The notes under the pieces were generated by a model. That model was not told where the DNA came from and did not search any database. It saw nothing but the letters and a program-made list of their open reading frames with translations. Shown here piece after piece: positions 11,466-62,452 of a DNA stretch of 64,000 nt. The position numbers and the translations under genes are program-made. Every line of letters begins with the position of its first letter. Position 1 is the stretch's first letter. This DNA comes from Dastarcus helophoroides (Eukaryota; Arthropoda; Insecta; Coleoptera; Bothrideridae), in NCBI GenBank assembly GCA_028583605.1, contig CM053332.1, positions 15,840,767 through 15,904,766 of the forward strand, written 5' to 3'.

Positions 11466-12190
11466 TTTTTCCTCTTTCCCTTCCTCTACTTCTTTCTCTT
11501 CCTTTTTCTCTTCCTCTTCCTTTTCCTCTTCCTTTTCCTCTTTCTCTTCCTTTTCCTCTTCCTCTTCCTCTTCCTCTTCCTCTTCCTCTTCCTCTTCCTC
11601 TTCCTCTTCCTCTTCCTCTTCTCTTCCTCTTCCTCTTCCTCTTCCTCTTCCTCTTCCTCTTCCTCTTCCTCTTCCTCTTCCTCTTCCTCTTCCTCTTCCT
11701 CTTCCTCTTCCTCTTCCTCTTCCTCTTCCTCTTCCTCTTCCTCTTCCTCTTCCTCTTCCTCTTCCTCTTCCTCTTCCTCTTCCTCTTCCTCTTCCTCTTC
11801 CTCTTCCTCTTCCTCTTCCTCTTCCTCTTCCTCTTCCTCTTCCTCTTCCTCTTCCTCTTCCTCTTCCTCTTCCTCTTCCTCTTCCTCTTCCTCTTCCTCT
11901 TCCTCTTCCTCTTCCTCTTCCTCTTCCTCTTCCTCTTCCTCTTCCTCTTCCTCTTCCTCTTCCTCTTCCTCTTCCTCTTCCTCTTCCTTTTCCTCTTACT
12001 CTTCCTCTTCCTTTACCTCTGTCTCTTCCTTTTTCTCTTTCTTTTCCTCTTTCTCTTCCTTTTCTTCTTCCCCCTTCTCTTTCTTCTCCTCTGTCTCTTT
12101 CTCTTCCTTTTTCTTTTCCTCTTCCTCTTCCTTTTCCTCTTCCTTTTCCTCTTTCTCTTTCTCTTCCTCTTATTCTTCTTCTTCTTCTGC
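11466..12190. repeat. (TTCCTC)n hexanucleotide array
   Basis: About 700 bp of near-perfect TTCCTC repeats, degenerate at both ends. The right end passes through TTCTTCTTCTTCTGCTGC, a terminus shared with the array at 16125-17190. The complementary strand reads as Lys-Arg repeats; this is not a gene. Confidence 0.95.
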
Positions 12191-16124: not shown

Positions 16125-17190
16125 CTACTTTCTCTTCCTCTTCCTCTTCTCTTTCTCTTTCTCTTTCTCTTCTCTTCTCTTTCTCTTCTCTTTCTCTTCT
16201 CTTTCTCTTTTCTCTTTCTCTTTCTCTTTCTCTTTCTCTTTCTCTTTTTCTTCCTCTTCATGTTACTCTTCCTCTTTCTCTTCCTCTTCCTCTTCCTCTT
16301 CCTCTTCCTCTTCCTCTTCCTCTTTCTCTTTCTCTTTCTCTTTCTCTTTCTCTTTCTCTTTCTCTTTCTCTTTCTCTTTCTCTTTCTCTTTCTCTTTCTC
16401 TTTCTCTTTCTCTTTCTCTTTCTCTTTCTCTTTCTCTTTCTCTTTCTCTTTCTCTTTCTCTTTCTCTTTCTCTTTCTCTTTCTCTTTCTCTTTCTCTTTC
16501 TCTTTCTCTTTCTCTTCCTCTTCCTCTTCCTCTTCCTCTTCCTCTTTCTCTTTCTCTTTCTCTTTCTCTTTCTCTTTCTCTTTCTCTTTCTCTTTCTCTT
16601 TCTCTTTCTCTTTCTCTTTCTCTTTCTCTTCCTCTTCCTCTTCCTCTTCCTCTTCCTCTTCCTCTTTCTCTTCCTTTTCCTTTTTCCCTTCCTTTTCCTC
16701 TTCTCTTCCTCTTCCTTTTTCTCTTCTTCTTCCCCTTCCTCTTTCTCTTCCTCTCCCTCTTCCTCTTCCCCTTCCTCTTCCTCTTCCTCTTCCTCTTCCT
16801 CTCCCTCTTCCTCTTTCACTTCCTCTTCCTCTTCCTCCTCCTCTTTCTCTTTCTCTTCCTCTTCCTCTTTCTCTTACCCTTTCTCTTCCTCTTCCTCTTC
16901 CTCTTTCTCCTACCCTTCCTCTTCCTCTTTTTCTTCCTCTTTCTCTTTCTCTTTTTCTTCCTGTTTCTCTTCCCCTTCCTTTTCCTGTTTCTCTTCCTTT
17001 TCCTTTTCCTCTTCCTGTTCCTCTTCTTCTTCCTCTTCCTCTTCTTCTTCCTCTTCCTCTTTCTCTTTCTCTTTCTCTTCTCCTTCCTTTTTCCCTTCAT
17101 CTTCCTCTTCCTTTTCCTCTTCCTTTTCCCTTTCCTTTTCGTCTTCCTTTTTCTCTTTCTCTTCTTCTTCTTCTTCTGCTGTTGCTTCTT
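16125..17190. repeat. (TTTCTC)n/(TTCCTC)n hexanucleotide array
   Basis: About 1.07 kb of pyrimidine hexanucleotides with alternating blocks of TTTCTC and TTCCTC. The right part is degenerate and ends in TTCTTCTTCTTCTGCTGTTG, matching the terminus of the 11.5-12.2 kb array. Long frames on both strands (Leu-Phe/Leu-Ser or Lys-Arg repeats) are artefacts. Confidence 0.95.
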
Positions 17191-21107: not shown

Positions 21108-21979
21108 AAATCAATAATCTTTCTTTAATAAATATTCAAAATGTTGTCCATTTACTATCTGACAATACCCTAAACGAAACTGAAACTCGTTTTGAACATT
21201 TCTGATTACTTCGGGAGAAATTAGTCTCCACTCCTGTCTTATTCGTCCTTTCAACTCCTCAATATTTGCAGGTTGGGTCTTAAAAACTATGCTCTTCAAA
21301 TATCCCCATAAGTAATAGTCCATAGGTGCTAAGTCCGGAGACCTGGATGGCCATTCAAAAGGTCCTCTACTACCAATCCATCTGCCTGGAAATACATCGT
21401 CCAGATACTCACAGGTCTTGCAAAATGAGGAGGAGCATCGTCTTGTTGAAACCAGATGTTTCTATTCGGGACATCAGCTTCGACAGGATCAGGAAAAAAA
21501 ATAGCTAAATCAGGAATTAGCTCTTCCTGCAAGAATTCTAAATATCCTACCCCATTGAGATTTCCTTGGAAGAACATTGGTCCTATAACTTGATCACCAA
21601 CAATCCCTGCCCAAACATTGACTTTCTCTGGATGTTGAGTGTGGCCTTTCCTCATCAAGTGTGGGTTGTTGTCTGCCCAGTAACGAAAATTTTGACGATT
21701 TAGCTCACCATTTAACATAAACGTTGATTCATCTAAAAACAGGATATTTTTTATGCTTGGAACATTTCTGTCCACTACATCCATCATTTGTTTGCAAAAC
21801 TGGAGCCTTCTATCCGGATCATCTTCTAAGAAGTCATGGAGGATTGTCATTTTAAAAGGATGAAATTTTTGCACTTTCAGAATTCTTATAACTGAAGAGT
21901 GGCTAATTTCGAGTTCCCTACCTATCTGACTAGTGGAAACATGAGAATTTTCTTGGACAAAGAGAAGTACATACTTCAT
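21108..21979 (-). pseudogene. Mariner-superfamily transposase, C-terminal part, frameshifted
   Basis: The minus strand from 21979 encodes a helix-turn-helix (VSTSQIGRELEISHSSVIRI) and the catalytic domain with ILFLDESTF (first Asp), WFQQDDAPPHF (second Asp) and, after a frameshift near 21408, FEWPSRSPDLAPMDYYLWGY (third Asp) through to HFEYLLKKDY. Restoring the frame gives the same 41-residue spacing as the element at 4443-6677, but the sequences differ substantially, so it is another lineage. The N-terminal part continues on the far side of the inserted hAT-like element. It is non-functional as it stands. Confidence 0.88.
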
Positions 21980-39120: not shown

Positions 39121-39124
39121 AATG

Positions 39125-40620
39125 GGATGGGATGGGATGAGATGAGATGAGATGAGATGAGATGAGATGAGAAGAGAAGAGAAGAGAAGAGAAGAGAAGA
39201 GAAGAGAAGAAAAGAAAAGAGAAGAGAAGAGAAGAGAAGAGAAGAGAAGAGAAGAGAAGAGAAGAGAAGAGAAGAGAAGAGAAGAGAAGAGAAGAGAAGA
39301 GAAGAGAGAAGAGAAGAGAAGAGAAGAGAAGAGAAGAGAAGAGAAGAGAAGAGAAGAGAAGAGAAGAGAAGAGAAGAGATGAGAAGAGATGAGAAGAGAT
39401 GAGAAGAGATGAGAAGAGATGAGAAGAGATGAGAAGAGATGAGAAGAGATGAGAAGAGATGAGAAGAGATGAGAAGAGATGAGAAGAGATGAGAAGAGAA
39501 GAGAAGAGATGAGAAGAGATGAGAAGAGATGAGAAGAGATGAGAAGAGATGAGAAGAGATGAGAAGTGATGAGAAGAGATGAGAAGAGATGAGAAGAGAT
39601 GAGAAGAGATGGGAATGGGATTGGATGGAATGGGATGGGATGGAATGGAATCGGATCGGATCGGATCGGATCGGATCGGTTCGGATCGGATCGGATCGGA
39701 ACGGAACGGAACGGATCGGATCGGATCGGATCGGATCGGATGAGATGAGATGAGATGAGATGAGATGAGATGAGATGAGATGAGATGAGATGAGATGAGA
39801 TGAGATGAGAAGAGAAGAGAAGAGAAGAGAAGAGAAGAGAAGAGAAGAGAAGAGAAGAGAAGAGAAGAGAAGAGAAGAGAAGAGAAGAGAAGAGAAGAGA
39901 AGAGAAGAGAAGAGAAGAGAAGAGAAGAGAAGAGAAGAGAAGAGAAGAGAAGAGAAGAGATGAGAAGAGATGAGAAGAGATGAGAAGAGATGAGAAGAGA
40001 TGAGAAGAGATGAGAAGAGATGAGAAGGGAAGAGAAGAGAAGAGATGAGAAGAGATGAGAAGAGATGAGAAGAGATGAGAAGAGATGAAAAGAGATGAAA
40101 AGAGATGAGAAGAGATGAGAAGAGATGAGAAGAGATGAGAAGAGATGGGAATGGGATTGGATGGAATGGGATGGGATGGAATGGAATCGGATCGGATCGG
40201 ATCGGATCGGATCGGTTCGGATCGGATCGGATCGGAACGGAACGGATCGGATCGGATCGGATCGGATCGGATGAGATGAGATGAGATGAGATGAGATGAG
40301 ATGAGATGAGATGAGATGAGATGAGATGAGATGAGATGAGAAGAGAAGAGAAGAGAAGAGAAGAGAAGAGAAGAGAAGAGAAGAGAAGAGAAGAGAAGAG
40401 AAGAGAAGAGAAGAGAAGAGAAGAGAAGAGAAGAGAAGAGAAGAGAAGAGAAGAGAAGAGAAGAGAAGAGATGAGATGAGAAGAGATGAGAAGAGATGAG
40501 AAGAGATGAGAAGAGATGAGAAGAGATGAGAAGAGATGAGAAGAGATGAGAAGAGATGAGAAGGGAAGAGAAGAGAAGAGATGGGAAGAGATAAGAAGAG
40601 ATGAGAAGAGATGAGAAGAA
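39125..40620. repeat. Pentanucleotide satellite with ~536-bp higher-order repeat
   Basis: Blocks of GATGA, GAAGA, the decamer GAAGAGATGA, GGATG/GGAATG variants and GGATC follow one another in a fixed order. The transition GGGAATGGGATTGGATGGAA occurs at 39611 and again at 40147, giving a period of 536 bp over a little more than two cycles. The 526-codon minus-strand frame is an artefact of a period divisible into sense codons. Confidence 0.93.
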
Positions 40621-47970: not shown

Positions 47971-50167
47971 TTCTTTTGCAGCTTAAACTTTTTTTTATTG
48001 TTCCACTTTTTTCTGAAATTCAAGATTTTAGAAACCCGCCTTTAAATGTGTCCCTGTTTTTCCTAAAATTTCAACAATAAAGTTGAAATTTCAACAATGA
48101 AGTTGAAAATTCCTGTTTTATACATGTTCGGGTTTTTTCCATAAATTTCCCCCAGTTTTTGAATATTTTAAACTTGTAAATTTTCTCCAGTTTTGACGTT
48201 GCAATTTAAATTTTTTTCCCCTCTACAATTTGACCTTAATGAATAAAAAATCGAATGTAAAAGTTAACGTTTATAGTTTATAGTTAAAATTCGAGACTGA
48301 AAGCCAGTGCGTTTGAGATTTTTTTTAAATAAATCTCCAGTTATAGTGTTTTCTTTGAAGTTACGAGTTTTTCTCTTTTGTTCAATGACTTTTTCATTTG
48401 AACATCCCATATGTAATTATACGTTTGACATCATCAAGAGCAAATCTGGTCAAAAGACAACGAAAAAACGCCTATAGTCATAGAGCTTGATCTAAGGATT
48501 TTAAATTTCCATTTTCCTACAATTAATACCGCCGCTTTGTCCGTTGATTTATTTATGTTGCTAGCATTCTTAAAATAACTGTTGCTTTTACATACTTTCC
48601 AATTCATTAAATTATTTAAATCTGGATCAAACTCTAATGGTAAAATAGTTATCTGTAATTTTTTTGACAGTGACATTTGTTCCCTCTTCCCTTCCGAAAA
48701 GAGAAGTGTCAAGTGTAGTGTTGTGTTACCGGTTAATAATTTGGGAAATTTCACTATAGCATTAAACTAAGCCGAATTTATCGCAGTAAGTATCACAACC
48801 GATATATTATTCTTTATAAAATCCCCCCAAACGGGCAATTTCTCGGTGAAATTCGTAGCAGTTGCAAGAGAATGACACAGATTGTCTTTTGAGGTTATTA
48901 ACATTAACCAGTATATTTTACTCCTTTAACCACATGATTAATTAATCATGATTAGACAATGCGGATTTCGAGAGTAGAATTTGCTTTTTTCAACGTACTA
49001 GCTTAATTAACTAACATCGAAGTCGCTTCATCTGTTAACATTTGGGTCGATACTTTGAGGTTATATGTACAACAGCAAATAATATTAGTTTGAGTTTAGA
49101 CGTGTCTTATAAGCTTTTAGATTACTAATTAATTAATAGTGGTTGGCGGCTTCGAGGAAGTTTGAATAATTAAAATCGTGTGCCGTGTAAATACGTTCGA
49201 AGCGCCCGCTGTAGAAAGTCTCCAGCCCGCTGGTACATGTTGCGACATCTATTAGTGGATTGCCGAACTTCCGCCTCCCGACTATATTTAAATTTCGCCC
49301 GCCTTTTATTGTTTTATTGTAGAAAGCATAATTCTATAATTTATCGATTATATCTGGGTGGAATTATTGTTTGGGTGTACAGGCCGGAGGCGGTAGTGCG
49401 CTAAATTACATTAATATTTAAACCCGGGATTGGTGGTAAATTCTAAATTGCAGAGTTGCGCAAGGGAACTTGTTATTAGGCTGCGTTCTGAGCAAAAATC
49501 TCCACCGTACAATTTCGATATCAGATTGAAAAATTAGTATTTTGTGGAAACTAAGTTGCAGTTGGTAATATGGGTTATTATGCTTTGGATAAAACAGTGA
49601 TTTGCATACACGCTGAATATACATTTTTGCAAATGCCTTGTGGGAGGGTTGATCTCGTAAATTTGCTTACATTTTGGCGGTTGTCGAGGAAAATTAGTCG
49701 CTGCGTTTTTATATTAAAATGAATTTTGAGCGTTGTATTGTTTACGTAATTCTTCTAACTTGTTTAAATTGCTGTATTAGTTTTCATTCTAGCGGAAATA
49801 CGCGACATTTTAGCTCAACATAATTTTTAAACTTTTACAACAATATTACAATTGTTACATTGATTTTGCCAGATCTATTTCATGCAAGAGAATACTTAAG
49901 GCAAATGACGTTTTTTTGTTGTAATGATATAATCAAAATAATCTGATTTCAAGTGATATTAAATAACAAATAAACTAGTCATTAGTGTAAATAATTTATT
50001 TTTTAAATTTATTTAACAGTAAAGGAATATCTTACTACCGTTTTGAGAAGTTTTTTGTTAATTCTTTCTAAATATAGTAAATTTGGTAATAATCTGACAG
50101 TTCATTACTAACTTTATCGTTAAATGTACTCTAGGGCGATCATTTTAGCGATCTAATCAAATTTCAG
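47971..50167. other. Upstream region of OLA1; 5' UTR exon and promoter not pinpointed
   Basis: The OLA1 ATG is immediately preceded by TTTCAG (50162-50167), a good splice acceptor, so an untranslated first exon should lie in this stretch. The GC-richer patch around 49180-49300 and the segment near 49660-49700 are candidates, but nothing decides between them. Frames at 48434-48754 (minus) and 49180-49404 (plus) are unsupported. Confidence 0.45.
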
Positions 50168-50348
50168 ATGCCACCCAAAAAAGTTGCAGAGCCTGAGAGA
50201 AAGCCCTTGATTGGTCGAGTCGGAACAAATCTTCGGGTTGGAATTGTGGGTGTCCCCAACGTTGGCAAATCGACCTTCTTCAACATATTGACTAAGAGTT
50301 CTGCTCCAGCTGAAAACTTTCCTTTCTGCACCATCGATCCCAATGAAA
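50168..50348 (+). CDS. OLA1 coding exon 1 (P-loop)
   Basis: Encodes 60 codons plus one base. It carries the Walker A motif GVPNVGKST and the strongly conserved [10 protein letters not shown]. It ends ...AATGAAA before ATAAGT; the leftover A joins GT of exon 2 to make AGT (Ser), the residue expected after NE. Confidence 0.93.
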
Positions 50349-53300
50349 ATAAGTATAATTTTGTATTTATTCCATCTTGTATGCTGAGAAGAGACCCCTC
50401 TCTTCTTAGAGGAAATTTTGAACGTTATTGAAGGCTTAAAGTACAAATCTTGTCCCCTGAAACCAAGAAATATTAAAAAAACACAACAGAGGTTGCAACC
50501 TCTGTTGTGTGTGTTTTTGAATCTTTCTTGGTTTCAGGGGACAAGATTTGTATTTCAATTTTTGAAGATAACCAAGGATCAGTCCGTTCCACCATAAAAA
50601 AATTATTGAAGGCCTGAAATATTTTTATTCGTTATTTATTTGTTCGTTCGTCCTTCCTTCCTTCCTTCCTTCCTTCCTTCCTTCCTTCCTTCCTTCCTTC
50701 CTTCCTTCCTTCCTTCCTTCCTTCCTTCCTTCCTTCCTTCCTTCCTTCCTTCCTTCTTCCTTCCTTCCTTCCTTCCTTCCTTCCTTCCTTCCTTCCTTCC
50801 TTCCTTCCTTCCTTCCTTCCTTCCTTCCTTCCTTCCTTCCTTCCTTCCTTCCTTCCTTCCTGTCCTTCCTTCCTTCTTCCTTCCTTCCTTCCTTCCTTCC
50901 TTCCTTCCTTCCTTCCTTCCTTCCTTCCTTCCTTCCTTCCTTCCTTCCTTCCTTCCTTCCTTCCTTCCTTCCTTCCTTCCTTCCTTCCTTTCCTTCCTTC
51001 CTTCCTTCCTTCCTTCCTTCCTTCCTTCCTTCCTTCCTTCCTTCCTTCCTTCCTTCCTTCCTTCCTTCCTTCTTCCTTCCTTCCTTCCTTCCTTCCTTCC
51101 TTCCTTCCTTCCTTCCTTCCTTCCTTCCTTCCTTCCTTCCTTCCTTCCTTCCTTCCTTCCTTCCTTCCTTCCTTCCTTCCTTCCTTCCTTCCTTCCTTCC
51201 TTCCTTCCTTCCTTCCTTCCTTCCTTCCTTCCTTCCTTCCTTTCCTTCCTTCCTTCCTTCCTTCCTTCCTTCCTTCCTTCCTTCCTTCCTTCCTTCCTTC
51301 CTTCCTTCCTTCCTTCCTTCTTCCTTCCTTCCTTCCTTCCTTCCTTCCTTCCTTCCTTCCTTCCTTCCTTCCTTCCTTCCTTCCTTCCTTCCTTCCTTCC
51401 TTCCTTCCTTCCTTCCTTCCTTCCTTCCTTCCTTCCTTCCTTCCTTCCTTCCTTCCTTCCTTCCTTCCTTCCTTCCTTCCTTCCTTCCTTCCTTCCTTCC
51501 TTCCTTCCTTCCTTCCTTCCTTCCTTCCTTCCTTCCTTCCTTCCTTCCTTCCTTCCTTCCTTCCTTCCTTCCTTCCTTCCTTCCTTCCTTCCTTCCTTCC
51601 TTCCTTCCTTCCTTCCTTCCTTCCTTCCTTCCTTCCTTCCTTCCTTCCTTCCTTCCTTCCTTCCTTCCTTCCTTCCTTCCTTCCTTCCTTCCTTCCTTCC
51701 TTCCTTCCTTCCTTCCTTCCTTCCTTCCTCCTTCCTTCCTTCCTTCCTTCCTTCCTTCCTTCCTTCCTTCCTTCCTTCCTTCCTTCCTTCCTTCCTTCCT
51801 TCCTTCCTTCCTTCCTTCCTTCCTTCCTTCCTTCCTTCCTTCCTTCCTTCCTTCCTTCCTTCCTTCCTTCCTTCCTTCCTTCCTTCCTTCCTTCCTCTTC
51901 CTTCCTTCCTTCCTTCCTTCCTTCCTTCCTTCCTTCCTTCCTTCCTTCCTTCCTTCCTTGTTATGTTAACTGATATATACGCGAAACCGCGAAGGTGTCT
52001 GTCTGTTTGTCGGCCTTTGGTGGTTCAACTACCACACCGATTTCGACGAAAATTGGTGTAGAAAATCTTTGAAACTCGAGATACAAAATAAGCTCCTTTT
52101 TATCACCAGGATAAACTTTTGAGAAAAACCAGAAATATTTGAAAAACGTATTTAAAAAAGTCAAAATAAAAAAAATGGAAAAGTTAAAATGTTAAACTGT
52201 GCGGAAAAAAGGGGAAATAATTTTTAGAAATATCAATAGCTCTACAGGAGCCTAACTCTTTAAAGAGAATTTTCTAAAATTTATAAAAAGGTCCAAATTT
52301 CGAAAAAATAGTCGGCATGTTGAAAAATTTTCAAAAAAGACCAAATTTTCGAAAAATAGTACAATGGAAATTAAAAAAAGCGTGGAAGAATTTCTCAAAA
52401 TAAGTTGAAATTTACAAAAATTCAAAATATCGAGAGAAACGCCAAAATCTTGAATTCGAAATTTTCAAAAAAAAAAACCATAATCTAGAAGTAGGAATTT
52501 GAAAGATAAAATAACTTACAAAAATACGAAGGATTTTGAGAAAAAGTCGAAATTTTGATAAAAATGGGAATTTGAAAAATGATGTTAAAAATTTTGAAAC
52601 GTGGAAATTTTTAAAAAATCCAAAATTTGAAAAAGAAAACAAAAGACAAAACGTCGTCTTTTGAAGGCGGAATTTTCGCAATAAAGTAAAACTTTGGAAA
52701 AAGTGGACATTTTGAAATGTCAAAATTTTTCAAAAAGTAAAAAGTTTCAAAAGCGGTAATTTTGAAAACGTGTTTTAAACCACGCCAAAATCAGAATTTA
52801 AAAATAACGGAAATTTGTAAAATAAATAAAAATTTGAAATTTTGAAGTCCAAATTTTTACAAAAATGTTAAAAATTCGAAAAAGTAGAAATTTTGAAATG
52901 TCGATAGGAAATTTTCAAAAAATCATAATCTTCAAAAAATCCGAATTCGTAAGAAAAAGTCAAAATAATTTTTAGAAAAGTCAATGTTTCGAGTAAATGT
53001 TCAAATCTTCAAAATAGAATCCGAGTCGTAAAAAAAAGTCGAAATTTTCATAAAAAGTCAGAATTTCTCAAGATTTACAAAAAGAATCCAAACTTCGACA
53101 AAAAATCAACCTGTTTAAAAAAAATAAGTTGAAATTTTGAAAGACTCGAAATTTTAAAAATGTCGTATTTAAAAAAAAACTGTTCGTTATTTTGAAAAAA
53201 TAAAAATTATCAAAATGAAGTCAAAAGTTGGTGAAAATTACAAATTTTGAAAAAAGCAGAAATTTTTGAAACAAATCAAAATTTTTTAAAAAGGTAGAAA

Positions 53301-56300
53301 TTTTGAAAGAAAAATTTGAATAAATTGGAAGTTTCGAAAGTGTCGAATTTTCAAAAAAGGTCGAAATTTTCATGAAGTCGAACTTTTGAAAGGTTCGAAA
53401 TAAAAAAAACTAATTCTCCAAAAAAGCCAATATTTAAAAAAAATTGAAATTAAACTAAAAGTGGAAGAATGTTTTCAAGTAGCGCAAAATTTACAAAAAG
53501 TCAAAATTTCAACAAAAAAATCGAAATGTAGTTGAAATTTTGAAGAAAAGCGGAATCTAAGAAAAATATTTATTTTAAAAGGGCCCACTAAGTTCCTAGT
53601 GAATCTTTTTTTAAACAATGATTTATGAGAAAAAGTGTGGAAAATTCGAGTCTGTTACAAAAATAAAAACGAATCGAATTATTCAAAATAACCAAACTGG
53701 GTCAACGTGACTTAAAAGTCAGATGAAGATGACAAATTCAATTAATATCAAGACCAATTTCTTCGAATTGGATCCCGATAACTCCGAATACAAAATCGAT
53801 CAGTCTATAATATGCACAAAGAAAATCCTCGGCGAAATTCCATTTTTAAATTACGAACCGGAAACCTACGAATCCCCGGAGAATATCCAATGGTACCCAT
53901 TCGTCAACACATACTACAATTACACCGAAGACGTGGATGCTCTCTCCCGAGTCAACCACCTCTTATCCTGGAAACCCTCCCAGACGAACCTACTAGAAGA
54001 CCGCGATCCCAAAAGCGACGATCCCCACTTCTACACCGAGAAGGACGTCCAAACCCATTATTTATCAACTCCCCCATTGTGTTTCATCATTTTAGGCAAA
54101 CCGAACATCGGTGAGCAGGAGCTGGGGAAATTGATCGCCGACTACTGGAATTGCGTCTATATCGATCCGGAAACTCTCATCATCGAGGAAATCGAATCCG
54201 GCAGCCGAGTTGGCCAATGTATCGAATTCAATCTAAGGTGCGGGCGCGCCATCGGTATCGATATCATTCTGAGGCTAGTGCAAAAACGAGTGAATACGCA
54301 GTCGGTGTTGCACCGTGGGTTCGTGCTTTGCGGGTTGCCGGTTATTCCTAATGATTTGTACTGAGGAGGATCCAGTGTCGACCGAGACTGCGTTTTTTCA
54401 CCGTCCACGATATATTCGAAGAAATTCTGGAATCAGTTATGGATTTAGGGCAGGAAGCAGACATGGAAGCTTCTAAAGGTCGCTGGTGATTACGAACAAC
54501 CGGGCGAAGGAGCGGCGCCATTCGGCCAAGGCGATGAGGGAACACTTGGCGAAGCCAAGACTAAGAGGCCTAAGTCTACAGTACCTGTGATACCGCCGGA
54601 TATTGGTACCACTGAAGACAATCTTTGTGAACCTCCTGACATTGGAACTGATTACGAGGGTCAACTAAATTGTATTTTTGATCTTTTCGTAGAACCATTT
54701 ATCATACTTTATATCGCTTGCAGTAACGAGGATGTTTTAAGCAAACGCGAAGAGTACAGATATGATATTTATTCACAGAAAACCATCGATTTGCAAAAGG
54801 AGAAATCCGATAAATTAATCTTCTCCTATTTCAGCAGAGACCCAACTTACAACGCAAATCAGCTGTCTGAGGAATTCTTCGATGCGGCTCGCACTTACGG
54901 AGCTGACAGCTCAAGACTGCAACATCTCGTGAGACTTCCGCGGAACCTGAAGGTTAACATAATCTCACAATTGGGCCGTTACCACGAAAAAGCCCTAGAT
55001 CACATCGAGAAACTCATCCTGAAGCACAATCATGAGTTCTTCCTCAAGTTAGATGGGAGGACCGGGTGCAGCGCGTATGATGAATACAATTAAGTGGAAG
55101 TTGAGAACCCTCAACGTTCAGAAGGTGGTAATTCCAGAAAAACTGAATGCGGTCGATGGCCTCATCGGCGAGGGTGAAGGCCCGGGAGACAGCACGAATT
55201 TCGACGGTGTTCCCCTGGATGACTGCTTTAAGCAGTTATGCCGAAAGCAAATACCCAGTCGTTCCTTCCGGTGGACGCTTTCCGATTGGGGTTTTAGATG
55301 CCCCGTCGCCATGAAAGAAGGTGAACTGATCGAGGGCGACCCAAACTACGCCGTCCACTTCATGAATAAAATGTTCTTCCTTAGCAACCAGGAAGCCTTC
55401 GTGAAATTCTATCGAAATCCTCGTCCGTACCTCCTACATCCCTACCCCAAACCTCACGGAAGAATCTACGTCTTTGGGCCAATCTGCTCAGGGAAGACCG
55501 CAGTAGCGCGGTGCTTGGGATATCTGTTTAACCTTAAGCCGCTTTGTCCGGCTGATATGCATCATAAGTTTCTGAAGGATAAGCAGCACGAGTTGGTGGA
55601 AAGAGTGAAACAAGCGACAATTGCTGAAGCCATAGTGCAGTTGGATGTAGCTAGAAAAGAGCAGTTGGAAGATCGCAAGCACGCAACTAAATCGGAAATA
55701 AACGAATGGGTGGAAAAATTCCGAAAAGCTTTGATGCACGAATATCGCGTGCTTAAGCGCCAGGCTCATAGCAGCATCGACACTTTGAGACAAGTTTCGT
55801 CGTTTCCCAAAAGGTTGCGCAAAGATACCGATTCTGATATACTCAGCGTTTTAACCGAAGACAGTTACATGGATCTACCCATTTTAGATTCAGAGGAAGA
55901 ATGCTTGCAACTACACGACAACGTCGATATGATATTGGAATATGCTCCGCCGCATATCCAGGAGAAAATGAAGATTTTGACCCAAGATCCCGTTCCAGCG
56001 ACAGCCTTCGATGATTATGTGCAAGATGCGGCCAAGAAAGCTGTCAAAAATGTTAACCTCGACGCCGTCAAACTCACCGAGGACGATTTACTACACATAT
56101 TTGTCACAGAATTCCAAGAAGGTCGAAGACAGGTACATGAAAAAATTTGGAACAAGAGGCGGTTGGATCATGGACGGTATGCCACTCGACCTCGGAACTG
56201 TTACAACAGCTGTGGCCGGACTACAAAGCCGACCACGTCATCATCTTAAAGAGCAACCAAATCCATTTCCTCATCGAAAGATTCGCCAGCAGAGGACAAA

Positions 56301-59300
56301 ATATTTTCCTCGACTATAAAAATTTGTTTTTGGAATTGGGTAAAACAGAGGCCGCTTTAAGAGTTCCTAGTTCGATATCCACAGATTCGTTCAAAACGAA
56401 AATGGCGAGAGATTTCCTAGACGATCTTCTGAGTGCCGATCCTTTTTTACGATTGAATCGGGAACCGCCAGGCCTCGACACTAGAAGATCCCTGGAGGCG
56501 TACCAGCATCACTTACAGGATTTCCCCAAAGAGTGTATTCAGGTGATGAACTTTTTGGAAGAGAATAGGGTGTACCCTATTGAAATTGACGTTAGTAATA
56601 AGTCATTTCCTAATTTGCTGAAGGAAGTCATGAAGATTTTTGAAGATGAATTTCAGCAGGTCGCTACCCCATTCAGTGAAGAGGACCGGGCTGATGAAGT
56701 GCAAGATTTTGGTGAAAATGCTTTTCAGGAAGAAGAAGCCGGTGAAGGTGGTGGTGAAGATACTCTCATGCAGAATCGAAGATGGGGTGATTCGTTTTGG
56801 TACTGTCCTGTTACCCTTGAGGAAAAGTGGGTGCTCTGGAAGGGGAAAAATGATTTTGCCGCTAAATATCTTAGCAAAGTCTATCTTTTTTCCTCTGATA
56901 AAGACATGCGTGCTTTCCTCTTTAATCCTTCTAAGTACGTAAATAATATCTTCCCGTCTAAGGACCCCCCTCCGCCGAGAATCTGCATCGTTGGGCCGGG
57001 ACGTTCCGGTAAAACCATCATCGCCAAAGCTTTGGCTAGAAATTTCGGATTATGTTATATTAATTACGCGGATTACATTGTTGGTTTGGAAGAATCCTAT
57101 AATTACACGCAGGAAGATGGCACTGTTATTAACCCAATTAAGGAGTATCTTACTTTAGATCAGCCGTTGCCCGAGGAGGTACTCAAGATTCTACTCTTCA
57201 AGTTGTGGTTCGAGGAACCTTACCAAAAAATCGGGTTTCGTTTTGGATGACTTTCCGAAGAGGCCATCAGATGTCGCTTTTATGGTCAAGCACAAGACAA
57301 TTCCTGATTTGGTTATATCGCTGTTTATACACGAAGGTACCCTAAGGACGCGATTCCTCGAGGAGAAGATGTTGGAGTGGCAAATTAAAATTGAGGAAAT
57401 TCAGAAAAACCAAACCAAGAGAAATCAAGAGATATTGCAAGAGTGGGAGCTGCAGCGGCAGAAGCGATTTGAACAACTCATGGAGGTGCGAAGGCAACAC
57501 AGGTATTCCAGTAAGTTGCAAAAACGAGATGAAAGCGGCCAAACCGAAGAGAAGTCGGCGGAGAAATCTGACAAACCGGAACGATTGGAAGATATCAAAG
57601 AAACCGACGAGGAAACCGAGGGGTCTACCGTTAGAACCAAATCTCAGGTGAGCTACAACTCGGTGGACGAGCAGGAGGACTTCAATGAAGTCACTAGGAT
57701 GCTAATGGCGGAGATGCCGGAGCCGGTATTCGAAATACAATTTGAATCTGCCGAAGAAGCTACTGAGAGATTCGAGAACGAATTCGACGGCTTTTACATG
57801 AAAGATGTGGATTATATCCAGGCGATTAAAGATGCGTGTCTGGTGGAGATTATTCCGTGGAAGGAAGTCAATTCTAATTTAAGTCAAGAGAATGTCATCT
57901 ATCAGTCGTACGTGGTTTTGGATCCGATTAAATTTCGGAATAAGTCGCATTTTGAGCGATGCTACGACATATCAGTTGAGGTTGCTGAAAGGTTGTTGTC
58001 CAGTGGGTACTATTTCTTGAGCAAGTTCGGGCGCACTTGTCCTTTCCAGTACTATGAAAACAGTATGCCTCTTCAGATGTTTCTGCCGATGGAACAGAAA
58101 TTTAACGTATATCCTACGATCCATAGATATTACATTTACTTTATCGTGGGCAAAAACAAAAGAGAATTGTTTAAAATGAATCCCCTCAAGTACATATCGC
58201 CTAATAAAGTATATTTTCCTCTGATACCGCTACGAATGGCTATTATTGGGCCACCAAAGTGTGGAAAAACTGCTTTAGCTGAACGATTTAGAAATGAATT
58301 CGGATTAAAAATCATCACCAGAGGGCAAGCTGCTAGACACTGCTTGTCCTATTTGTCCTTTTCGGATGTATCTACCAAAATGGAAGAGATACTTCGTAAA
58401 GGGTTGCCCTTAACCGATGAGCTATCCATGACGGCAGTGGAAGCTTTATGTTTTGACCCACGCGTCGTAACTCAAGGGTGCGTATTTGACGGATTCCCCA
58501 CTAACATACATGAAATGCAACAACTGGCTAATAAAGGCTTAGTACCCCAAGTTATGATAGACCTACACACGGAAGACGTGACGAAATACGACATGATATC
58601 TGATGATGCGGCTAAATTATTCGAACCCCCCTACAGTAAAAGATTCTTGCAACACCGTTACAAAGTATGGAAGGAATCTGCAACTTTTTTCAGAAATTGG
58701 ACCAATACTGAATACCAAAATTTCTGCAAAGTCAACATCAACCCATCCATGTGGAAAATCTGGGTCAAATCCTGCCAAATCGTCAAGGCGACACTATTTG
58801 AAATACAACACTATTACATGCACGCTTACGAAGATTGGCCTCTAAGGGTATCCAATATGCTGGTGACACCTTTGGAATTTTTAGAGCGACAAAGCAGCTA
58901 CAAAAATTACTGCCCAGTTTGCCTCCACTACACCGGTAAGTTAAACGGCGGCGGGGAACCCCCGGACCGAACGGGGATGGTGCAGTATAGACAATACCTC
59001 TACTGGGTGTGCCAAGCTCACATAGAAGAATTTCAGGATACGCCAGCGCTTCTACTTACCGCCGCTTAACAATCATAAGATGCCGGATAACCTCCCACAA
59101 GTTCCACCAAACCCAAACGCTCCCGTACACGAGGACGGTTTTTGCGTGGTCTGCTACAAAAACGAGCGACAGACAGTCAAAGGTTCCCCCAACTTCGCCA
59201 TAACCTACAAGGGTACCACTCATTACTTCGACAACCTCACTTGTCGAAGTACCTTCATATCGGACGCCAACGCCTACTGCTGATATAAGTTTTACCTATA

Positions 59301-62300
59301 AAGGGCCGCTCGAACTACCCCTCTTTGGTCTACCAAGACCTACCCGTCCTCGGCATGCTCGAACAATACGTCTCCAAAATCTTAGTAAAAGCCATCAATT
59401 CCATAGTTGGTTACCGCCCGATTATTCCAGGGCTTACCGAAGCGGCGTCTGCTTTGGTCGGCATCGGTCTCTATCTGAAAACGACCAATGAAAACACCAG
59501 TCCGCAATACGCGCCATACTACAGAGAAGCATTCGATCTCTTCCAAAAGAAGAAGAAAGTGCTGATTAATTACTTGGCTTTCATGAAGAGGTATAGGAAT
59601 CCGTATTTGCACTACGAAGAGCCCTTGCCCCAACTCAAAATCGAGGAATACCAACGGTCGGAGTGCGTTTGCTCCGAAAAAAGCTCGTCACCGTTGCATT
59701 TGTCCAGACTAGACTTTTTATCACCCAAGTAGTTTAGTTTTCATTTTTTATTTTTATTAAATACTGTATACGGTAGTTCACACGATTTTTTCGTGATATC
59801 TGGTATACAACGAACGATTATATTGGTTGAGCTTTAGTGAACACGTTTCTGAAGAACAATTTTCTTCAGCTGGAAAAAATCGTAAAACTACACGAGGATT
59901 ATTTTATTGGAAAAATAAATGACTTCTAATGATTTGCTAAATCTTCTTCCATTTACGTTCTTGTTGAAGCGCTGAGAAATCTCTCATTTTCTTCCTGAAT
60001 TAGAATAGTTGACTCAAAATTCCTTGTAGAATTGCATGGATCAATACTAGGAACTAGTATTTCTCTATTCGATTCAATTATGTTACAATCAAATTGACAC
60101 CATTAACTATAAATTTCGATGTAAGCATTACAAACAGTTAAATTCTAATTATTATGTATTTGGTTGGTTTTTTGGGTACCTTTTTACTTTAATCATAACC
60201 ACTAATCGCGTTTAGTATTTGTTTTGACTATTTTTAATTTTTCTTATTCTACTCAAAACGTCTTCTGATCATTTGGATTTGGTCTTATAAAGGCGCGTCC
60301 GAATTTTATCCGAAGATAAAATTCAGACGCTCTTCTCGTTGACCAATAAAATACTTAGAAGTATAAGAACAATTAATTACTGCAGGAATGTAAAATACTA
60401 AAATTTTATTGGTCCATATAGATATTGCAATTTGCTAACAAAAAAAAAAAGGTAATTATAAAGAGAATTCGTTGTGATTTCCAACACTCTTACAGTTTTT
60501 GTTCTAATTTGGTTGCTATTTTCCTTATTAAAAATATTGTGGAATCTAATGTTTCAGTCCATTTGTTAAAGTGATGACACTAAAACATCAATTAGATTGT
60601 TCTTACGAGAATTTTCTGTATATTTTCACGATATTTTGTTTCAGTACGTCGAGTACCAGTACCTGACTCGAGATTCGATTACTTATGCGAGTACTTTAAG
60701 CCTTTAAGGTAAGTAGAATGGTGCTAAAATGCTCGTCGACTGATTCTAGCGTGTATTCGAAAAAAAATTGGAGGTGACTGATTTTAAAAGATTTACGTAC
60801 GTTCGAATTTCGATCTTTCGTGATTTCGTGAACCCCCAAGTTTTTACCCGCCGCTCCTTTAGTACTTTCCAAACTGGTCATTTAAAAGTTATTAGATCAC
60901 TGGAACACGACATTAACCGATAATCGACGTTTAACAGCTAAAATATGTGCGGCACATTTTTGAAATGTTTGAAGAAATGCCCAAGTTCGTAAGTTCCCAC
61001 CGACCGTGCGGCGCCTCAAAATTGACGGTGACCAAATTGGTCATAACCACCAATTGGTAAGCAAATTATTTCGGTCGTTATTATATTTCGTCTGTGTACA
61101 CACAGCTCGTGAATAATGACCACAAATTTGATCTGTTTAATGTCATGTTTCGAGAAAATGCAGGTGCGTGTAGTTAATAAATTGTATTCGACGACAAAAA
61201 CCCTCGAAAGAAAAACGATGGTAATGGTCGGAGCTAAATCTAATATCGCCCTCGATTTTATCCTGATTCGTCAAAATCAAGTAATTTTCTTATTTTCTCG
61301 ACTGACTTATTGCTTCGTTAGAGGTAATTATATTAAAACGACTGAACTTTTTATGCATCCTAAATAAAGTCTGAGGCTAATTTTTGAAATTAAAAGCTAA
61401 TTTGGGATGTCTCCAGAGTTTTCGCATTCGCCTGATATTTTTCCCTAATCGGATTTTAATTGCGTGAATAAAATATGGGGGTAATAAGGGATTAATACAA
61501 AGGCGTGGTGGACAGTAAATAAGTTATGACATTATTCAAGGTAATGGCATCGGAGTATAGCGTATAATGAGAAGACATTAAATTAATGTGAAAAGATCAC
61601 CACAACTGTTAAAATCATTGTGTAAATGTTTTCAGTTTTTATTAAGTAGGACTAATTTTAAATCTAGTTCTATTTCGGTTAATTCGACTTTAAAAAAAAT
61701 TGATAATGTTTATAAATTTGGAGTCTTTTTTTTTTCGAAATTTCGTAAAATCTCAATTTTCGACATATTTATTGGGATTTAAAGTTTATGCCTGATTATT
61801 ATTTTAAACTTCTACTCCTTAATACGACGACCTCTTTCATAACATTTCGAAAGTTTGGTTATGAAAATTGCTGAATTTTCTCTTTTAAATGTCACGTCTC
61901 GCTAAAAGAGAGTGGCCTTCTTTTAAAAAAATTCTTTCTTTTTCAGTAAGGTGCCCGCCTTCCTTAACGTCGTAGACATAGCAGGTTTAGTCAAAGGTGC
62001 TTCAGAAGGACAAGGTCTCGGAAATGCCTTTTTGTCCCACATCAGCGCTTGTGATTCCATCTTTCATCTATGTCGTAAGTAATTCTTGAACGCTGCAGTA
62101 TCCAATAATTTGTTCATGTGTTAATGTAAACCTGACAAAATAATTAAATACTTGGTAAGAGCAAATGGTTTATAGTCAAACTTTGGATCATTTAATTTTG
62201 ATCGTTATTGCTCTATAACCAAAAATACCCATGAACCAACGATGAAATTTGTGTTTATTTTAATGGTTTTAATTAGGGGCATTTGAGGATGATGATGTTA

Positions 62301-62452
62301 CACACGTTGAAGGGGACGTCAATCCAGTTAGAGATTTGGAAATCATCGGAGAAGAGTTACGATTAAAGGATGAGGAGACTCTGATGAAGAATATTGAAAA
62401 ATTAGAAAGGGTTGTTTGCAGAGGGAACGATAAGAAACTCAAACCAGAATAT
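50168..62452 (+). CDS. Obg-like ATPase 1 (OLA1/YchF family), four coding exons, 3' part beyond the window
   Basis: Cytosolic P-loop ATPase of the OBG/YchF family, which binds ATP rather than GTP and is linked to translation and stress responses. Coding exons are 50168-50348, 60649-60709, 61947-62074 and 62277-62452; together they give 546 nt, 182 codons, of the ~396 expected. The start [13 protein letters not shown] has the family's MPPKK. G1 is GVPNVGKST, followed by [10 protein letters not shown], then [36 protein letters not shown] (G3) and [19 protein letters not shown]. The last exon ends at KKLKPEY with phase 0 before GTAAGT. Introns 2 and 3 are GT-AG. Intron 1 (10.3 kb) requires AT-AC ends to keep the frame and contains an AK9-like sequence and a 1.3-kb (TTCC)n array. 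The acceptor directly before ATG implies an untranslated 5' exon. Confidence 0.95.
50442..50605. repeat. Palindromic element of the hammerhead-like repeat family (core deleted)
   Basis: Left arm GTACAAATCTTGTCCCCTGA ... CACAACAGAGGTTGC joins directly to right arm AACCTCTGTTGTGTG ... GGGGACAAGATTTGTATTTC and the 3' end GATCAGTCCGTTCCACC. The hairpin with the hammerhead-like core is missing between the arms. It lies ~95 bp inside OLA1 intron 1. Confidence 0.85.
50648..51959. repeat. (TTCC)n tetranucleotide array, ~1.3 kb
   Basis: Almost pure TTCC/CCTT repeats with about ten single-base slips. It starts 300 bp after the inferred OLA1 splice donor. The 473-codon Phe-Leu-Pro-Ser frame through it is an artefact. 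Confidence 0.97.
51965..52110 (+). repeat. Dispersed repeat, copy B
   Basis: Same family as 40696-40851: GCGAAGGTGTCTGTCTGTTT, CCGATTTCGACGAAAATTGG and ATACAAAATAAGCTCCTTTT. Here too it adjoins a long simple repeat. Confidence 0.6.
52111..53620. repeat. AT-rich degenerate repeats in OLA1 intron 1
   Basis: Variants of GTCGAAATTTTGAAAAA without a clear long period. No coding content. Confidence 0.65.
53723..54364 (+). CDS. AK9-like, segment 1: N-terminus and first kinase module
   Basis: Opens with ATG ([20 protein letters not shown]) and contains a degenerate P-loop, [20 protein letters not shown] (54080-54140): the Lys of GxxxxGK(S/T) is replaced by Glu, so this module probably does not bind ATP normally. 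The segment goes on through [18 protein letters not shown] and stops at a TGA that coincides with a frameshift; the following sequence reads [13 protein letters not shown] in the next frame. Confidence 0.75.
   Translation: MKMTNSINIKTNFFELDPDNSEYKIDQSIICTKKILGEIPFLNYEPETYESPENIQWYPFVNTYYNYTEDVDALSRVNHLLSWKPSQTNLLEDRDPKSDDPHFYTEKDVQTHYLSTPPLCFIILGKPNIGEQELGKLIADYWNCVYIDPETLIIEEIESGSRVGQCIEFNLRCGRAIGIDIILRLVQKRVNTQSVLHRGFVLCGLPVIPNDLY
54587..55093 (+). CDS. AK9-like, segment 2
   Basis: Same frame as segment 1 after two compensating shifts in the gap. It includes [20 protein letters not shown] and [20 protein letters not shown], corresponding to the end of the first kinase module, and a helical region ending [12 protein letters not shown]. 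The last residues before the stop are out of frame; the protein continues as [13 protein letters not shown] in the next segment. Confidence 0.7.
   Translation: MIPPDIGTTEDNLCEPPDIGTDYEGQLNCIFDLFVEPFIILYIACSNEDVLSKREEYRYDIYSQKTIDLQKEKSDKLIFSYFSRDPTYNANQLSEEFFDAARTYGADSSRLQHLVRLPRNLKVNIISQLGRYHEKALDHIEKLILKHNHEFFLKLDGRTGCSAYDEYN
55060..56146 (+). CDS. AK9-like, segment 3: second kinase module
   Basis: Contains [20 protein letters not shown], the cysteine-proline spacer typical of AK9, then [20 protein letters not shown] and the canonical P-loop [20 protein letters not shown] (about 55462-55520). A long charged helix follows ([20 protein letters not shown]). The frame breaks at an A6-T3 run near 56143; [15 protein letters not shown] follows in another frame. 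Confidence 0.8.
56194..57229 (+). CDS. AK9-like, segment 4: end of module 2 and third kinase module
   Basis: Starts with [20 protein letters not shown], then a linker and the spacer [17 protein letters not shown]. The third P-loop is [20 protein letters not shown] (about 56980-57040), canonical. It ends ...[13 protein letters not shown]; an A6 run at about 57224-57229 shifts the frame and the next segment continues [18 protein letters not shown], the kinase signature. Confidence 0.82.
57230..59045 (+). CDS. AK9-like, segment 5: charged linker and fourth kinase module
   Basis: The longest uninterrupted piece, ~600 codons. It opens with [12 protein letters not shown], then a Lys/Glu-rich coiled-coil-like linker (about 57350-57700). 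The spacer [20 protein letters not shown] precedes the fourth P-loop [20 protein letters not shown] (58232-58290) and the signature [20 protein letters not shown]. The end has [16 protein letters not shown], another spacer. The frame breaks near 59045, after EEFQDTPA. Confidence 0.85.
59046..59732 (+). CDS. AK9-like, segment 6: C-terminal modules in two frames
   Basis: The first part reads [20 protein letters not shown] and [20 protein letters not shown], a last cysteine spacer, up to FISDANAY. After a shift near 59283 the AK9 C-terminal module follows: [40 protein letters not shown] and [20 protein letters not shown], ending in TAG at 59730-59732. ATTAAA lies ~24 bp downstream as a possible polyadenylation signal. 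Confidence 0.8.
59733..60648 (+). other. End of OLA1 intron 1
   Basis: AT-rich, with no gene. A near-perfect hairpin lies at about 60295-60335 (GCGTCCGAATTTTATC with GATAAAATTCAGACGC). The last 40 bases form the pyrimidine-rich acceptor region of the inferred AT-AC intron. Confidence 0.6.
60649..60709 (+). CDS. OLA1 coding exon 2 (61 nt)
   Basis: Encodes (S)[19 protein letters not shown](S), closely matching the family's ESRVPVPD and the CxYxKP that follows. The donor GTAAGT at 60710-60715 is canonical. The exon leaves AG, completed by T of exon 3 to Ser. Confidence 0.93.
60710..61946 (+). other. OLA1 intron 2
   Basis: GTAAGT ... TTTTTCAG. AT-rich, no recognised internal feature; an 83-codon frame at 61116-61367 has no support. 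Confidence 0.85.
61947..62074 (+). CDS. OLA1 coding exon 3 (Walker B/G3)
   Basis: Encodes [38 protein letters not shown] and FHLC. DIAGLV is the G3/Walker B motif and GQGLGNAFL is a family signature. It is preceded by TTTTTCAG and followed by GTAAGT. Confidence 0.96.
62277..62452 (+). CDS. OLA1 coding exon 4
   Basis: Starts after TTTTAATTAG and completes Arg across the junction. It encodes [20 protein letters not shown] and [20 protein letters not shown], then [18 protein letters not shown], the helical domain. It ends in phase 0 before GTAAGT; the next exon (DIM...-like in relatives) is beyond the window. Confidence 0.95.

What the first reader, a model, noticed from the sequence alone, without database searches (positions are those of the whole stretch)
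50349..60648. OLA1 intron 1 appears to be a U2-type AT-AC intron
Only AT-AC ends restore NESRVPVPD, which is conserved among OLA1 proteins. The donor ATAAGT and acceptor TTTCAGTAC fit the rare class of AT-AC introns spliced by the major spliceosome. Neighbouring GT and AG, offset by 4 and 3 bases, would give a frameshift. Such introns are very few per genome, and here the intron is also 10.3 kb.
Basis: partly seen in the sequence, partly recalled or inferred. Interest (0 to 1): 0.75.

Follow-up and report, generated by a model that had tools for sequence, protein, structure and literature searches.

The report
AT-AC intron in beetle OLA1 gene
The first coding intron of a beetle's OLA1 gene starts with AT and ends with AC instead of the usual GT and AG but looks built for the ordinary splicing machine, and relatives suggest the same odd intron is old, widespread in arthropods and often misread by gene-annotation software.

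Summary
Of all junctions within about 40 nt, only this one restores NESRVPVPD, and its ends are AT-AC. The donor ATAAGTAT differs from the gene's three other readable donors (GTAAGT) only at +1. It scores far above both in-frame GT donors nearby and does not look like a U12 donor or branch site. OLA1 gave one match per exon in this genome.

New: relatives carry a fingerprint of the same intron. Among 165 listed OLA1 proteins, 26 read NENK instead of NESR. All 26 come from genome annotations and none of 69 from transcript-like contigs. Four same-species pairs differ only at these two residues. NENK is what a GT-AG reading gives when both ends slide +4, and it implies the donor A(T/C)AAGT. One synonymous change in this window would create that reading. 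NENK occurs in seven insect orders, a scorpion, two decapods and one cnidarian.

I conclude: a major-spliceosome (type II) AT-AC intron, probably conserved across arthropods and commonly mis-annotated. No RNA read from this species was available, and no relative's genomic DNA was seen.

The parts
50168..50348 (+). OLA1 first coding exon (MPPKK...TIDPNE + first base of the Ser codon)
   Evidence: Translation; one match in own genome, 97% identity over query 1-62; 307-bit match of the exons 1-4 peptide to human OLA1 2ohf.
50349..60647 (+). AT-AC intron, phase 1, 10,299 nt
   Evidence: Only junction restoring NESRVPVPD; ends read.
50349..50356 (+). 5' splice site ATAAGTAT, U2-like
   Evidence: PWM without +1/+2: 5.44 against -3.31 (GT at +4) and -0.93 (GT at +30) (frequencies recalled).
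50353..50354 (+). Competing GT, 4 nt inside; frameshifts with the CAG at 60642-60644; this is the register that relatives' annotations appear to use (NENK)
60625..60629 (+). Candidate branch site TTCAC (A60628, 19 nt before the intron end)
   Evidence: yUnAy scan, (a second candidate, CTTAC with A60605, is 42 nt away); best match to the recalled U12 branch consensus in the last 60 nt is 5 of 9.
60636..60647 (+). 3' splice site TTGTTTCAGTAC: CAG followed 3 nt later by the AC that is inferred to be used
   Evidence: same AG/AC spacing as the Arabidopsis reporter of PMC5473141.
60648..60708 (+). OLA1 exon 2 (GT CGA GTA CCA ... TTA AG)
   Evidence: followed by AAG|GTAAGT; one match in own genome.
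60650..60652 (+). Arg62 codon CGA; an AGA here would create an in-frame GT-AG reading, NENKVPVPD
   Evidence: 2 of 456 single edits give a canonical solution, both NENK.
61947..62074 (+). OLA1 exon 3; preceded by TTTCAG, followed by GTAAGT
62277..62452 (+). OLA1 exon 4; preceded by TTAG, followed by GTAAGT; two more exon matches (to about residue 242 of 398) follow beyond the window

Best explanation
The first coding intron of this beetle's OLA1 is a type II (U2-type) AT-AC intron. U1 pairs with UAAGUAU across +2 to +8 and sets the 5' cut after GAAA despite A at +1. U2AF and the poly-U tract define the 3' region, with a likely branch A about 19 nt from the end. After branching, the A at +1 disfavours the CAG that comes first and favours the AC three bases later, which pairs with +1 A in the second step. 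The product restores Ser61-Arg62 of the conserved NESRVPVPD. The same intron is probably present across arthropods. In relatives whose Arg62 codon is AGR, software that insists on GT-AG slides both ends by +4 and reports NENK. Shown: sequence, reading frames, one genomic match per exon, protein conservation, NESR/NENK split by source. Inferred: use of the junction in RNA, spliceosome type, branch point, second-step logic, cause of NENK. The confidence given is for this window's intron; for presence across arthropods I would say about 0.75.
For: Only junction giving NESRVPVPD. Donors of the three other readable OLA1 introns are GTAAGT; this one is ATAAGT. Donor PWM 5.44 against -3.31 and -0.93. 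One match per exon in 538.9 Mb (5 candidates scored), and the gene continues downstream. None of 456 single edits near the two ends gives a canonical (GT-AG or GC-AG) NESR junction, and 1 of 51,200 paired edits does, so a simple assembly error is unlikely. Two of the transcript-like relatives with highest identity (93%, P0015 and P0052, the latter over 93% of the query) read NESRVPVPD. NENK: 26 of 83 annotation entries, 0 of 69 transcript-like, 0 of 6 UniRef-only, 0 of 7 held by both (Fisher p 2e-8 for 26/83 against 0/69). Isoform pairs of Cylas, Bactrocera neohumeralis and Condylostylus, and two Musca domestica entries, differ only at residues 61-62. PMC4176328 documents misalignment to a nearby GT-AG for ITPR1. 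PMC5473141 describes a GT-AG intron nested in a U2-type AT-AC intron with the two 3' sites 3 nt apart, AC outside.
Against: No RNA from this species. The base at -1 is A, not G, and U1 pairing is only moderate: -4.4 kcal/mol against -11.7 for a window around the intron 2 donor. For NENK, two annotated isoforms are sometimes listed side by side, so some real use of the +4 register is not excluded. Two Musca vetustissima entries differ at four further sites besides 61-62, so not every NESR/NENK pair is clean. Relatives' genomic DNA was not seen, so their donor is inferred from protein. Transcript-like and annotated entries do not sample the same species, relatedness is not corrected for, only the best 120 rows of each search were seen, and I set the classes by hand from the source columns.
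Confidence: 0.88

Rival explanations
1. A canonical GT-AG intron is used with extra coding sequence: donor 50379 GT with acceptor CAG at 60644 (12 residues in place of Ser61), or donor 50353 GT with AG at 60609 (15 residues in its place).
For: Both are in frame without a stop; the CAG lies after a good pyrimidine tract.
Against: Donors score -0.93 and -3.31 against 5.44. They insert 11 or more residues into a motif with no such insert in 269 homologues; the nearest thing is one firefly entry, P0045, with one extra residue.
Confidence: 0.04
2. The ends are AT-AG: donor 50349 with CAG 60644, giving NEIRRVPVPD, possibly after A-to-I editing of the donor A.
For: In frame; CAG is the usual 3' end; edited AT-AG sites exist in human (PMC4176328).
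Against: None of 269 homologues reads NEIRR; it needs an unproven edit or a disfavoured A/G end pair.
Confidence: 0.03
3. The intron is a diverged U12-type AT-AC intron.
For: AT-AC termini and a non-zero phase are common in U12 introns; the presence of the minor spliceosome in this genome could not be checked.
Against: Donor ATAAGTAT matches the recalled U12 donor ATATCCTT at 4 of 8 (by eye); best branch match 5 of 9; a pyrimidine tract adjoins the 3' site. No gene in the 19-row table of Drosophila U12 introns in PMC2831892 is OLA1 (section read; fly OLA1 = CG1354 is recalled).
Confidence: 0.05
4. In relatives NENK is genomic and real, and NESR arises by two A-to-I edits (AAU to AGU, AAR to AGR) rather than by AT-AC splicing. 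This rival concerns the relatives and is not exclusive of AT-AC splicing in the window.
For: N to S and K to R are exactly what such edits would do, and the split is genome against transcript.
Against: In this window GT CGA is written in the genome next to the intron, so no edit is needed there. Two near-complete edits in every species is unlikely. A paper search listing showed nothing on OLA1 editing (10 of 2,761 listed).
Confidence: 0.06
5. Sequencing or assembly error hides a GT-AG intron (overlaps with the first rival).
For: The AK9-like stretch in the same intron shows several frame changes, some at homopolymers, so the assembly may carry indels. Two single edits (one base at Arg62) would give a GT-AG NENK junction.
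Against: No single edit of 456 gives a canonical NESR junction; the NENK that two of them give is shown by none of the 69 transcript-like homologues. The donor agrees with the A(Y)AAGT implied in relatives.
Confidence: 0.04

Closest known systems
AT-AC type II introns of vertebrate sodium channel genes (SCN4A intron 21, SCN5A intron 25)
   Same: AT-AC ends with the type II label, found in two paralogues (passage in PMC4712308); [quoted passage not shown]
   Different: Different gene and lineage; their splicing was studied by Wu and Krainer (cited there, not read), this one not; no overlapping in-frame GT-AG register is known to me there (recall).
Alternatively spliced GFP reporter of Arabidopsis (PMC5473141)
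   Same: GT-AG intron nested in a U2-type AT-AC intron; AG and AC 3 nt apart with AC outside; only the AT-AC product is translatable (passages).
   Different: A transgene in a plant, with much GT-AG use; here an animal gene with a conserved protein.
Insect twintrons, prospero and ZRSR2/URP (PMC3564746, PMC2831892)
   Same: Two overlapping sets of splice sites at one intron position, AT-AC and GT-AG in prospero.
   Different: Those use both spliceosomes; here both registers look U2-type, 4 nt apart, and the second may be only an annotation artefact.
ITPR1 GA-AG junction in human (PMC4176328)
   Same: Reads at a non-canonical junction are aligned with mismatches to a nearby GT-AG and enter annotation (passages).
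   Different: Different dinucleotides; one species; here the error seems to recur across many genomes.

Membership tests
Type II (U2-type) AT-AC intron | Intron begins AT and ends AC | tested here: met
   Unique junction for NESRVPVPD is AT-AC.
Type II (U2-type) AT-AC intron | 5' splice site otherwise follows the U1/U2-type consensus | tested here: met
   ATAAGTAT; PWM 5.44 without +1/+2 (frequencies recalled).
Type II (U2-type) AT-AC intron | Pyrimidine tract and degenerate branch site, not the U12 branch consensus | tested here: met
   TTTTGTTTC tract; TTCAC 19 nt from the end; best U12 match 5 of 9.
Type II (U2-type) AT-AC intron | Junction seen in mature RNA | tested here: inconclusive
   Only by proxy: close relatives' transcript-like proteins read NESR; none is known to be from this species.
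Type II (U2-type) AT-AC intron | Splicing needs U1/U2/U4/U6, not U11/U12/U4atac/U6atac | not testable with these tools
   Needs biochemistry or knockdown.
U12-type AT-AC intron | Donor ATATCCTT and branch site TTCCTTAAC about 10-20 nt from the end (consensus recalled) | tested here: not met
   Donor 4 of 8 (by eye); branch best 5 of 9.
Twintron (two competing splice-site sets) | Both sets give in-frame, used products | tested here: not met
   In this window the +4/+4 reading would end in CG, not AG. In relatives it is untested at RNA level.

The most novel reading that the evidence does not exclude
OLA1 carries an ancient type II AT-AC intron that predates the arthropods, perhaps shared with cnidarians. 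It has resisted conversion to GT-AG for half a billion years and sits in a double register in which a +4/+4 slide swaps Ser-Arg for Asn-Lys. Many genome annotations report that slide as an isoform, and it may sometimes be a real, regulated two-residue switch or be scored as A-to-I recoding.
Probability: 0.45. Interest if true: 0.75.

Novelty: new member of a known kind. Interest (0 to 1): 0.58.

Why it matters
Type II AT-AC introns are about 0.01% of U2-type introns in honeybee annotation (PMC7367187 Table 2, passage; annotation may undercount them), and few natural ones are studied (recall). One conserved across arthropods in a housekeeping ATPase would be a natural series for asking how A at +1 and C at the last base keep working together and why the intron does not revert. 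It would also show that automatic annotation carries the same wrong two residues into many OLA1 records, which could be mistaken for alternative isoforms or A-to-I recoding.

Tried and rejected
Duplicate (mutually exclusive) exon 2: considered when the NENK isoforms appeared; no second exon 2 on the + strand from 49 kb to the end of the window, and the isoform pairs differ at only two residues, so rejected. Retrocopy or second OLA1 gene as the source of exon 1: own-genome search shows one match per exon (5 candidates scored). DNA search for a processed copy did not complete. Conserved junction in other collections: degenerate pattern FCTIDPNE+ATAAGT gave 0 hits in viral contigs and genome contigs, as expected for collections without animal genomes. 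U12-type: rejected on donor and branch site, but snRNA presence not checked. RNAduplex with U1 gave -4.4 for the AT window and -5.0 for the GT+4 window. I do not count this against AT, because the paired bases of the second window are the same UAAGUAU in the AT register. Rfam (gathering threshold) and tRNA scans of the window: nothing. Paper searches for CG1354 with intron, Obg-like ATPase with splicing, OLA1 with AT-AC, ATAAGT with AT-AC, and Obg-like ATPase 1 with editing showed no earlier report in their listings, nor did the general AT-AC searches; they cover only the held open-licence library. I opened nine papers, all as passages except one section of PMC2831892. The AK9-like gene in the intron was first taken for a spliced nested gene; no convincing introns were found and it shows frame changes.
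Full report
What is there. The window lies in a 538.9 Mb, 50-contig genome of what I take to be a beetle, because the highest OLA1 identities (90-93%) are mostly to beetles among the named entries. On the + strand it holds exons 1-4 of OLA1, and two further exon matches, to about residue 242 of 398, follow beyond the window; the rest was not looked for. Exon 1 (50168-50348) ends ...CCC AAT GAA A; exon 2 (60648-60708) begins GT CGA GTA CCA GTA CCT GAC. The intron between them is 50349-60647, 10,299 nt, starts ATAAGTATAA and ends TTTTGTTTCAGTAC. The finding's last base is one too far.

Is AT-AC forced? I tried every junction with the donor from 36 nt before to 40 nt after and the acceptor from 40 nt before to 36 nt after. 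One junction gives NESRVPVPD and it is AT-AC. Of 21 in-frame pairs with GT-AG, GC-AG, AT-AC or AT-AG ends, two are GT-AG (50352|60610 and 50378|60645), both with long inserts, and AT-AG 50348|60645 gives NEIRRVPVPD. Their products appear in none of 269 homologues; the nearest oddity is one firefly entry, P0045, NENNR. Sequencing error is an unlikely way out. Of 456 single edits (donor side 50340-50364, acceptor side 60628-60659), none gives a canonical NESR junction and 2 give a GT-AG NENK junction. Of 51,200 paired edits, 198 give some accepted motif (188 NENK, 7 NENR, 2 NESK) and 1 of these a canonical NESR (A50349G with C60647G).

Which spliceosome? Introns 2, 3 and 4 all have GTAAGT donors, and introns 2 and 3 end in AG; intron 4's end lies beyond the window. 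Intron 1's ATAAGT differs at +1 only. With recalled, approximate frequencies and +1/+2 left out, the AT donor scores 5.44, the GT four bases inside -3.31, the GT thirty bases inside -0.93, and the intron 2 donor 8.59. U1 pairing is weaker than at intron 2 (-4.4 against -11.7 kcal/mol). The recalled U12 branch consensus matches at most 5 of 9; TTCAC at 60625-60629 is a possible U2 branch site. PMC2831892 lists 19 Drosophila U12 introns and none is in OLA1 (section read; fly OLA1 = CG1354 recalled). I could not check for U12 snRNAs.

What relatives show. Searches (120 listed of 7,995; only the 7,996 candidates sharing most words were scored; 120 listed of 3,320) give 165 distinct OLA1 proteins. 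At residues 61-62: NESR 121, NENK 26, NENR 11, NEAR 3, NMSR 2, NENNR 1, NEGR 1. Sorted by hand by the source column: annotation entries 52 NESR, 26 NENK, 4 NENR, 1 NENNR (83, one of them, P0014, a UniRef-only genome prediction reading NESR); lgn/jgi/ena contigs, mostly the size of an mRNA, 57 NESR, 0 NENK, 6 NENR, 3 NEAR, 2 NMSR, 1 NEGR (69); other UniRef-only 5 NESR, 1 NENR (6); in both annotation and lgn 7 NESR (7). Fisher p for 26/83 against 0/69 is 2e-8, not corrected for relatedness. NENK species include beetles, flies, bugs and scale insects, a louse, butterflies, a caddisfly, a wasp, the scorpion Centruroides and the shrimp Penaeus (names; orders from general knowledge). A third search with a human-like NENK query (120 listed of 557) brought the set to 269: NESR 218, NENK 28, NENR 13 and ten others. 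The two new NENK entries are annotated isoforms of a prawn (Palaemon) and a hydrozoan (Hydractinia); a mite, Sarcoptes, reads NENKF. None of the listed vertebrate entries reads NENK. Sources of these last 104 were not tabulated beyond the NENK ones.

How the two readings relate. Cylas X1/X2, Bactrocera neohumeralis X1/X2 and Condylostylus X1/X2 differ at exactly S61N and R62K, as do a UniRef-only Musca domestica entry (which I take from recall to be transcript-derived) and the annotated one. Two Musca vetustissima entries differ there and at four further sites. Sliding an AT-AC intron A|AT AA|GT...AC|GT AG|A by +4 at both ends turns AT-AC into GT-AG and NESR into NENK. The window shows the same donor side, and changing C60650 to A (Arg CGA to AGA) makes the GT-AG NENK reading appear. 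So each NENK entry, if made by a GT-AG-only program, implies A(T/C)AAGT at its donor. PMC4176328 (passages) documents the same kind of error for a GA-AG junction. I infer, without having seen the genomes, that the intron is shared at least by many arthropods.

Mechanism. Shown in print for a plant reporter (PMC5473141, passages): a GT-AG intron nested in a U2-type AT-AC intron, 3' sites 3 nt apart with AC outside, can be spliced in either register. The window has this 3' layout (CAG TAC). The likely logic, recalled from work on first/last-base pairing and not tested here, is that A at +1 makes G a poor and C a good partner in step two, so CAG is passed over for AC.

Against. No RNA from this species; the NK register may have real minor use; editing could in principle explain relatives, though not this window, where GT CGA is genomic. 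Paper searches showed no report of an OLA1 AT-AC intron (listings of the open-licence library only).

Verdict. A new member of the known class of type II AT-AC introns, confidence 0.88 for this window, with a good case (about 0.75) for presence across arthropods and recurrent mis-annotation. The rivals overlap, so their odds are not meant to add to one.

Noticed in passing
53711-59732 (+): An AK9-like sequence with adenylate kinase domains (ADK match E 7.8e-11 in the frame 57159-59069; the name AK9 is recalled) lies inside OLA1 intron 1 on the same strand, G+C 45% (53711-59069) against 36% for the rest of the intron; no convincing introns and, by eye, at least five frame changes, some at homopolymers; its largest open frame gave one match in the genome. 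Decayed intronless gene or assembly indels.
   Followed up: partly
50651-51959: 1.3 kb TCCT tetranucleotide array inside the intron, 98% matches; other long simple arrays at 11469-12188, 16128-17176 and 39122-40616.
   Followed up: no
50440-50553: Inverted-repeat element just inside the intron (centre around AACACAACAGAGGTTGCAACCTCTGTTGTG), MITE-like, seen by eye.
   Followed up: no
4967-6103 (-) and 21111-21979 (-): Transposase-like frames; the first matches DUF4817 and DDE_3, the second is judged by eye.
   Followed up: no
P0045 (Pyrocoelia pectoralis): Annotated OLA1 reads NENNR, one residue longer there than the others seen; either another forced GT-AG or a real change.
   Followed up: no
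sand fly, Anopheles and other entries (e.g. P0065, P0078, P0084): NENR occurs also in transcript-like contigs (6 of 69), so Ser61 to Asn is a real change in some lineages, apart from the NENK pattern.
   Followed up: no
50162-50167: TTTCAG directly before the start codon: possible 3' splice site of a 5' UTR intron.
   Followed up: no
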